Below, in pieces: positions 9,739 to 11,844 of a stretch of 64,000 bases of DNA. The stretch lies in contig NC_021284.1 in the NCBI RefSeq assembly GCF_000400955.1, forward strand, positions 372,001 to 436,000, given 5' to 3'. This DNA is from Spiroplasma syrphidicola EA-1 (lineage in GTDB: Bacteria; Bacillota_I; Bacilli_A; Mycoplasmatales; Mycoplasmataceae). The notes under the pieces were generated by a model. That model saw only the letters and a program-made list of their open reading frames with translations, had not been told where the DNA came from and did not search any database. A program made the translations under genes and the position numbers. The first letter of the stretch is position 1. Every line of letters begins with the position of its first letter.

Positions 9739-11844
9739 ATGAAAAACAAAATGCAAGGTTTTTATGAAAAAATGTGTGCGAAGTGTCAAGCACGTTTTAA
9801 ACAATTAATTTTATATATTAGAAAGAACTTACCAGAACTATTAAAAGAATTACAATTATTTAAATGTGTTATTGATAAGGAACGTAAGATTGGTGATGAT
9901 AAAGGGATTACGCCATTAGCACTGATTAATTGTCAAAATGATTCTTATGTTTTTCTATGAAAAAATAATCTTTTTACTAATACTGTCCCAAAATTACCAA
10001 TTACCAACGATGCAATTGTGTTATCACAAGAAACAATTGATAATATCACAAACAATCAAAAACAAAAGTTAAGTAATAATAATAATAATAATAATAATAA
10101 TAATGAATTGTTACCAAGTGATTTTTTTACTGTGCCAACTATTATTAATAGCCAAAAAAATGATAATATCAATCGTCACTTAATTGATTTAAAGAGAAAT
10201 ATGGTAATCATGAATCAAAGACATTATCTTGATACTAATAAAACACGAAGACTTATTGTTATTTTTGGCTTAGTATTTTTATTAATTTTTGCTAGTTTTT
10301 CTGGTTTTTTAGGATGATATTTTTTACATACTACTCCAAATATTTCTAATCCATTACCTGAACAAATCCCAAGTCGTATTAATTTAGAACAGCATTTGCA
10401 AGAAAATCAATTAGCAGTGATTGAAGATAATCGTGAACAAACTATTTTAACAGCAGCTAAAGTTAAGAATAAAAATTTGGTGGTTGAAGATTTATTAGTA
10501 AAAGAAATTAGTGAAGATCGAGCAACAATTTATGTAAAATCTTCAAGTAGTATTTATAGTTTTAGTTCAACTGTGATTGTTCATTTTGCTGCTCAAAAAC
10601 TTACACTTAGTACACATATTAAAATTTCAAATTTTACAACGCCAGTTGAAGATTTAAATAAAGAAATTATGTTAGAAAAGATTAAAGCCGAAAACTCATT
10701 ATTATCAAAAGAAAAAGTAGAAATTAATGCAGTTTCAAATATTGGTACTGGGGGGACTCTTTTAGAAGCAGTTTTAGCTGCTAAGGCTAATAATGGTTAT
10801 TATCTTGAGGATGAAGAACTAAAAATATATTTTAGTACGACAGGGATAAAACAAATTTCCGATGATTTAGAAAAAATTAATATTGGTGATCTGTTAGAAA
10901 GAGAAGAGGAACTAATTATCAAAGCTGTTTTTGCCGCAAATCCAAATTTGATTCAAGAAGAAGTTATGATTTTGGCAGATTCAATTACAGCAACCCAAGC
11001 AATTGTAGTAGCAAAAGAAGATAGCGTTTTTTATGTTCCAAATAGTCAGCAAATTGTTCATTACAGAATTTTTAATGCCAGCATTGGAACAGAGCAAGTA
11101 TTAGTAAACAGTGAATTTAATGGCCAAGGAATTTTACCAACTAAAATAATAATGACATCTGATAATAAAATTATTTTTGGGACTAGTGAGGGAATTTACG
11201 AATTAGATTCAGAAGGGAAAATTATTAAAAAACTATCAGATCTTTGAGTTAATATGATGTTACAAATTACTGAAAATGAATTTTTGGTTTTTGATGATAA
11301 AAGTATCTTACATAAAGTATTTTTAGATGGAAAACCATCGGAACATTTAACTAACGATGAGCAATTTAACGATGAAATTACAAGTTTAATTAAATTGCAA
11401 GATGAAAGATTATGAGCAGTTGGAAAGCATAATCAAATATATCAATTAAATCAATCAAATTGGAATGATGTTACCAAAATTGATACTGGGATTACTAGTA
11501 CAAAATGAAACTCGGTACTATTTCAATTGGAGAATGGAACTATTTTATTCTCAACTTATATTGATAACGATACTAAAATTTTTGAATTAGATTTAGATGG
11601 AAACATTGTTAAAACAATATTAGACAAATCAATTCCCGTTATTACAGAGTTTATTTATTTTTCCGAAGATAAATTCATTGCTTTAGGATTTGAATCACAA
11701 TTATTACATTTAAATGCTGATGGATCTTTTAAAGAGTTAGCTGACATTAAGGAAGATTTTTATACTTGTGGCATTAAGTTAAATAATGGTAAAATTTGAG
11801 CTGCTTCTGTTACTGGAACAATTTGAGAATTAAATAGTAATTAA
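9739..11844 (+). CDS. one-pass membrane protein with spiralin-like repeats and a propeller-like C terminus
   Basis: A 701-residue protein not recognised as any named family. Visible parts in order: a cytoplasmic N terminus with CxxC (CAKC) near residue 14; ten consecutive Asn at about 113-122; a strongly hydrophobic helix at about 172-196; then a long presumably external part. Residues about 235-283, 312-365 and 386-440 repeat a pattern of NPNL, V.I, TATQAIVVAKEDSVFY and VHY that resembles the Spiroplasma spiralin repeat. From about 445 to the end, short repeats such as IFGTSEGIYELDSEGKI resemble beta-propeller blades. There is no lipobox. Six TGA Trp codons occur. The family assignment of the repeats is inference from pattern, not a search. 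Confidence 0.8.
10075..10104 (+). repeat. (AAT)10 trinucleotide microsatellite inside a coding region
   Basis: Ten perfect AAT units encode a run of ten Asn in the 701-residue protein. Slippage by whole units would change the length of the linker before the membrane segment without changing frame. Confidence 0.95.

What the first reader, a model, noticed from the sequence alone, without database searches (positions are those of the whole stretch)
9739..11844. Chimeric one-pass surface-protein candidate with spiralin-like repeats and a propeller-like tail
Seen: a cytoplasmic N terminus with CxxC, a ten-Asn run, one membrane helix, three repeats of about 55 residues with the pattern NPNL ... 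TATQAIVVAKEDSVFY ... VHY, and then about 250 residues of short repeats of the kind FGTSEGIYELDSEGK. Known: spiralin, the main surface lipoprotein of spiroplasmas, is built on a similar repeat. Inference: this protein shows spiralin-type modules, not as a lipoprotein but on a transmembrane anchor and fused to a ligand-binding-like propeller. That would make a candidate adhesin.
Basis: partly seen in the sequence, partly recalled or inferred. Interest (0 to 1): 0.75.

Follow-up and report, generated by a model that had tools for sequence, protein, structure and literature searches.

The report
Spiroplasma cell-surface propeller receptor, gene family
This gene makes a one-pass membrane protein of a fly-associated Spiroplasma that shows a six-bladed propeller outside the cell on a repeat stalk; it is one of eight sister genes, and its tip seems to change quickly in parts of the family, as expected of proteins that grip a host or other target; its stalk is not spiralin.

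Summary
The open reading frame 9739-11844 is real (701 aa, code 4). The genome length equals that published for Spiroplasma syrphidicola EA-1. Anatomy: a cytoplasmic N-terminal domain with four cysteines invariant among the paralogues (C13, C16, C43, C65), an Asn-rich linker, one membrane helix (about 172-194) with inside-positive charge bias, three repeats of about 76-83 residues (not 55), and a C-terminal six-bladed beta-propeller supported by a structure prediction and profile matches to solved propellers. The spiralin claim is not supported for this protein: no PF05215 hit, and profile comparison at control level. The repeats instead resemble those of MAG1450-family lipoproteins. The gene is one of eight dispersed paralogues. 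The cysteine head occurs in 12 of 14 genomes of the genus on several different ectodomains; in cousin proteins it does carry a spiralin domain plus propeller. S. chrysopicola keeps only a decayed remnant at the same place. In one of two orthologous pairs examined the propeller evolves about 14 times faster (dN) than the head. Best reading: a surface adhesin or receptor with an exchangeable tip. Ligand and cytoplasmic role are unknown. A new variant of a known kind, of moderate interest.

The parts
9739..11844 (+). whole gene, 701 aa under genetic code 4 (7 TGA read as Trp)
   Evidence: full-length paralogues at 33-38% identity
9739..10032 (+). N-terminal cytoplasmic domain, residues 1-98, with Cys13, Cys16, Cys43, Cys65 (possible metal site); the most conserved part, shared by many otherwise different Spiroplasma membrane proteins
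10075..10104 (+). (AAT)10 tract coding the ten-Asn run, residues 113-122, in a low-complexity linker
10252..10320 (+). membrane helix, about residues 172-194, ending near the invariant WYF (193-195); charge +10 before and -31 after
10381..10608 (+). ectodomain repeat 1, residues 215-290 (core 225-288)
10603..10851 (+). ectodomain repeat 2, residues 289-371 (core 302-370; the most diverged copy)
11080..11841 (+). six-bladed beta-propeller, residues 448-701; starts with the end of a blade unit and stops mid-unit (velcro-type closure)

Best explanation
The gene makes a surface-displayed adhesin or receptor of the N-inside, C-outside one-pass type. The cysteine domain stays in the cytoplasm and anchors or couples the protein, probably through protein contacts and possibly as a metal-held fold. 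The three repeats act as a stalk, and the six-bladed propeller at the tip binds a target, most likely on the insect host. The species carries eight such genes, and the lineage gains, loses and re-tips them. Shown or strongly supported by sequence and model: domains, topology by charge, family, propeller fold, gene decay in the sister species, fast tip evolution in one orthologous pair. Inferred: binding to the host, metal in the head, stalk role of the repeats.
For: Propeller: the family profile hits solved propellers (Cake10 1.4e-29, 3hxj 3.5e-17). AF2 from the single sequence gives an all-beta model, pLDDT 72, pTM 0.73. That model aligns to six-bladed lactonase and DFPase propellers at Z 20-21.6, rmsd 2.6-2.9, 228-232 residues. 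Topology: one TM, net charge +10 before and -31 after it. Surface location of the parts: related propellers in genome G004 sit on proteins with lipoprotein-type N termini, and the repeats match the MAG1450 lipoprotein family. Family: seven paralogues besides P0001; the head is in 12 of 14 genus genomes and carries other ectodomains. Fast tip: orthologues L022/L046 have dN 0.03 in the head, 0.145 in the repeats, 0.42 in the propeller (dN/dS about 0.09, 0.5, 0.6). Birth and death: S. chrysopicola keeps only a stop-ridden remnant of residues 560-701 between the same neighbours.
Against: No binding, expression or localisation data exist. A second orthologous pair (L025/L053) is conserved over its whole length, with propeller dN/dS about 0.17, so fast tips are not the rule for every member. 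The propeller fold alone does not tell binding from sensing or enzymes. Strong conservation of the cytoplasmic head could mean signalling rather than anchoring.
Confidence: 0.55

Rival explanations
1. It is a transmembrane sensor: the propeller binds a soluble ligand and the cysteine head passes the signal to a cytoplasmic partner.
For: The head is the most conserved part and under strong constraint (dN/dS about 0.09 in one pair); the same head sits on different ectodomains; four of eight family propellers match Reg_prop, the two-component sensor propeller.
Against: No kinase, cyclase or other output domain; no neighbour that looks like a partner; the head is confined to this genus and two or three relatives among 346 genomes of the class.
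Confidence: 0.22
2. It is part of a structural or antigen-variable surface coat, and rapid turnover reflects immune or phage pressure rather than adhesion.
For: Eight paralogues, one with near-identical 234-bp repeats, broken copies and a decayed orthologue in the sister species.
Against: A closed propeller is an uncommon coat module; genes are dispersed, and no expression switch was seen.
Confidence: 0.13
3. One reading: a spiralin-type protein moved from a lipid anchor to a TM anchor.
For: Similar layout by eye; the cousin L063 carries a true PF05215 domain at this place; one paralogue array reaches 12.8 bits for PF05215, E 0.18.
Against: No PF05215 hit in P0001 or in 23 repeat units; hhalign probability 0.5%, like reversed controls; MAG1450 is the better match.
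Confidence: 0.07
4. The propeller is an enzyme (lactonase or DFPase-like) displayed on the surface.
For: Best structural neighbours are SMP-30-type lactonases and DFPase.
Against: Many six-bladed propellers score alike; identity is 10-12%; fast divergence of the tip in one pair is unlike an enzyme core. Metal ligands were not checked.
Confidence: 0.03

Closest known systems
Spiroplasma citri adhesion-related proteins (ScARPs/SARP1, sarpin repeats)
   Same: Spiroplasma surface proteins with one TM and 6-8 repeats of 39-42 residues in an exposed domain; ScARP3d binds insect cells (PMC3485318).
   Different: ScARPs have a signal peptide, N-terminal repeats and a C-terminal TM, the reverse topology; no cysteine head is described. 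Sequence relation of sarpin repeats to this propeller was not tested.
Spiralin and spiralin-repeat lipoproteins (PF05215)
   Same: Genus, surface, repeated ectodomain modules; a cousin (L063) carries the same head with a true spiralin domain.
   Different: P0001 has no PF05215 match, no lipobox, and a TM anchor.
MAG1450 family lipoproteins (NF046007)
   Same: Repeat unit recognisably related: 11 of 23 repeats, best 2.2e-10; paralogue L026 1.1e-54.
   Different: MAG1450 members are lipoproteins; L026 is far below the family cut-off (185.9 against 425 bits), and P0001 alone does not match.
Reg_prop / ligand-binding sensor propellers of hybrid two-component systems (e.g. BT4673, 3ott/3va6)
   Same: Outside propeller on a membrane protein; family profile hits 3ott at 1.5e-6.
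   Different: No kinase or regulator part; a single propeller of six blades.

Membership tests
Spiralin (PF05215) | domain score at or above the Pfam cut-off (25 bits) | tested here: not met
   no match for P0001 at E<=1; none among 23 repeats at E<=0.05; the same library finds the genome's true spiralins at 65.4 and 187 bits
Spiralin (PF05215) | distant profile relation of the repeats to spiralin domains | tested here: not met
   hhalign probability 0.5%, like reversed controls; spiralin against spiralin 99.9%
Spiralin (PF05215) | lipoprotein signal with lipobox Cys | tested here: not met
   no N-terminal hydrophobic segment; sole TM at about 172-194
Six-bladed beta-propeller | six repeats of about 40-47 residues with ring-closing offset | tested here: met
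   six repeat sites; offset start and end
Six-bladed beta-propeller | propeller fold | tested here: met
   single-sequence AF2 model pLDDT 72; Z up to 21.6 to solved propellers; profile to PDB propellers
Reg_prop (PF07494) sensor propellers | Reg_prop match over cut-off | tested here: inconclusive
   4 of 8 family propellers match at E<=0.01, P0001 itself only DUF5050 at 25.7 of 27 bits; cousins L063 and L064 pass
ScARP/SARP adhesins | signal peptide, N-terminal repeats, C-terminal TM | tested here: not met
   no signal peptide, TM precedes the repeats; definition from PMC3485318
ScARP/SARP adhesins | sarpin repeats by sequence | not tested
   no ScARP sequence was compared
MAG1450 family (NF046007) | score over the family cut-off (425 bits) | tested here: not met
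   P0001 no match; paralogue L026 185.9 bits
SMP-30/gluconolactonase or DFPase enzymes | metal-binding catalytic residues in the central pore | not tested
   only the fold was compared
Cysteine-head family of Spiroplasma membrane proteins (described here) | N-terminal CxxC...C domain followed by linker and one TM | tested here: met

The most novel reading that the evidence does not exclude
The cysteine head defines a receptor system of the genus Spiroplasma: one conserved cytoplasmic module, one TM, and exchangeable stalks (MAG1450-like repeats, spiralin domains, other repeats) and propeller tips. Through it a wall-less bacterium would couple many surface ligands to one internal partner, such as its cytoskeleton or a regulator.
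Probability: 0.25. Interest if true: 0.68.

Novelty: new variant of a known kind. Interest (0 to 1): 0.45.

Why it matters
The adhesion proteins of Spiroplasma that I found described are few and mostly from the S. citri group. This describes a widespread gene family (12 of 14 genomes of the genus, up to 14 matches in one genome) with a conserved inside part and different, partly fast-changing outside parts. It gives concrete candidates for how fly- and other arthropod-associated spiroplasmas recognise their hosts, and a small cytoplasmic domain whose partner can be looked for.

Tried and rejected
Scan of genome contigs with alignment A1: no relative, probably because the pattern contained Trp, which this genus codes as TGA. 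A second scan with a code-4-aware pattern returned 52 stretches, none titled Spiroplasma, taken as chance and not examined. Phages and viral contigs: no relative; six pattern hits in viral contigs were not examined. Structure prediction of the three repeats from the single sequence failed (pLDDT 30), so the stalk fold stays unknown. PDB profile searches with the repeats and the cysteine head gave nothing usable. Pfam hits of the cysteine head (Thioredoxin 0.018, Yippee 0.023) were each in one member only and rejected. S1P-receptor PDB hits of the TM stretch rejected as hydrophobic-helix noise. Whether S. eriocheiris ALP (GU046560, PMC5266718) belongs to this family was not resolved: its sequence was not fetched. 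Promoter and terminator scans did not exceed shuffles.

Full report
1. What is there. The window lies at 372001-436000 of a 1,107,344-bp genome. That length equals the one published for Spiroplasma syrphidicola EA-1, and genomes G014 (1,123,322) and G016 (1,365,714) equal S. chrysopicola DF-1 and S. eriocheiris TDA-040725-5 (table in PMC4607517). The species names rest on these length matches. Under code 4 the ORF 9739-11844 codes 701 residues with seven TGA tryptophans. It stands alone between ispH (8704-9588, minus strand; named from knowledge of the family) and a 119-aa gene (11981-12340).

2. Anatomy. Residues 1-98 form a conserved head with Cys13, Cys16, Cys43 and Cys65; all four are invariant among the eight own paralogues. 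In more distant cousins the CxxC pair is invariant while Cys43 is not, and the place of Cys65 is Cys or His. A low-complexity linker follows with ten Asn coded by (AAT)10. One hydrophobic segment peaks at 172-173. Net charge is +10 before it and -31 after it, which by the positive-inside rule puts the head in the cytoplasm and the rest outside. No signal peptide or lipobox is seen.

3. Repeats. A profile from the other family members, with P0001 left out, finds P0001 at 1.6e-36; the best of 200 shuffles scores 0.0028. The copies span 215-290, 289-371 and 372-449. The 55-residue period in the finding is too short. Copy 2 is the most diverged.

4. Spiralin test. The genome's true spiralin-type proteins score 65.4 and 187 bits against PF05215. 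P0001 has no match and none of 23 repeat units has one. Profile-profile comparison gives 0.5% probability, like reversed controls, while spiralin against spiralin gives 99.9%. Eleven of 23 repeats match the MAG1450 lipoprotein family, best 2.2e-10, and paralogue L026 with its long repeat array matches it at 1.1e-54, although below that family's cut-off. So the repeats belong to another mollicute surface-repeat type. A very remote common origin cannot be excluded.

5. Propeller. The tail has six repeat sites and starts mid-unit, as ring-closing propellers do. The profile of eight family tails hits designed propellers (1.4e-29) and natural ones (3hxj, 3.5e-17; 3ott, 1.5e-6). AF2 on the single sequence gives 22 strands, mean pLDDT 72, pTM 0.73; the first 29 residues and parts of the last third are weak. 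VIA-align places it at Z 21.6, rmsd 2.6 over 232 residues on the lactonase-type propeller 2p4o, with DFPase and other propellers within about two units. This shows the fold, not the function.

6. Family and distribution. Seven other genes in this genome are full-length or near full-length relatives. Six keep a propeller-type tail by alignment, although that of L022 falls below the profile threshold; L025 has one repeat, and L026 has ten repeats and no propeller. The head is found in 12 of 14 genomes of the genus, up to 14 matches in one genome, and outside it in 3 genomes of the class-level sample of 346, one of them borderline. The same head carries other ectodomains. In genome G004 propellers of this type sit on proteins whose N termini look like lipoprotein signals, which supports an outer location.

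7. Evolution. In S. chrysopicola the same two neighbours are 95% and 89% identical, but the gene between them is a remnant: the last part, residues 560-701, is still readable at about 60% identity with stops and frame breaks. The simplest reading is that the gene was in the common ancestor and decayed in one lineage. For the orthologous pair L022/L046, dN rises from 0.03 in the head through 0.145 in the repeats to 0.42 in the propeller. The pair L025/L053 is uniformly constrained. These are simple Nei-Gojobori estimates without a test of significance, and only two pairs were examined.

8. Function. A conserved inside, a stalk, and a folded, in one pair fast-changing, tip on the surface of a wall-less, host-associated bacterium is best explained as an adhesin or receptor (0.55). 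A sensor (0.22) is the main rival. No ligand, no metal content and no partner is known.

9. Novelty. Propeller-tipped surface proteins and Spiroplasma adhesins are known kinds. The cysteine-headed, N-in family has no Pfam or NCBIfam model that I found, and six literature searches turned up no description of it in the open-access library. New variant of a known kind.

Noticed in passing
G000:C1 552327-555299 (locus L026:2828-5800): Paralogue of 990 aa with the same head and TM but ten repeats and no propeller; six tandem 234-bp units, four of them identical or nearly so (231-234 of 234 bases between neighbours), so repeat-number variation is likely.
   Followed up: partly
L063:1491-3332, L060:1766-3151, L064:2457-4013 (genomes G024, G023): Cysteine-head proteins whose stalk is a spiralin domain (PF05215, 27.9 bits in L063, 23.3 and 19.2 in the others, cut-off 25); L063 and L064 add a Reg_prop propeller.
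   Followed up: partly
L068:947-19409 and L069 (genome G004): Cluster of genes with the same type of propeller behind lipoprotein-like N termini; one search also lists degenerate propeller fragments with stops elsewhere in that genome.
   Followed up: partly
window 30368-31882: 504-aa protein very rich in Asn, Gln and Pro with one C-terminal hydrophobic helix and a short tail; no function looked for.
   Followed up: no
L134:20001-21008 (S. citri plasmid pSciBLH13-1): Cysteine-head protein annotated as hypothetical; the 335-aa reading frame ends inside the ectodomain that the longer relatives L066 and L067 have, so it looks truncated. A spiralin repeat-containing gene lies about 9 kb upstream on the same plasmid.
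   Followed up: no
L047:1955-2434, L048:8446-8952, L051:3178-4005 (S. chrysopicola, G014): Broken copies of the family (split or stop-containing reading frames), further signs of birth and death.
   Followed up: partly
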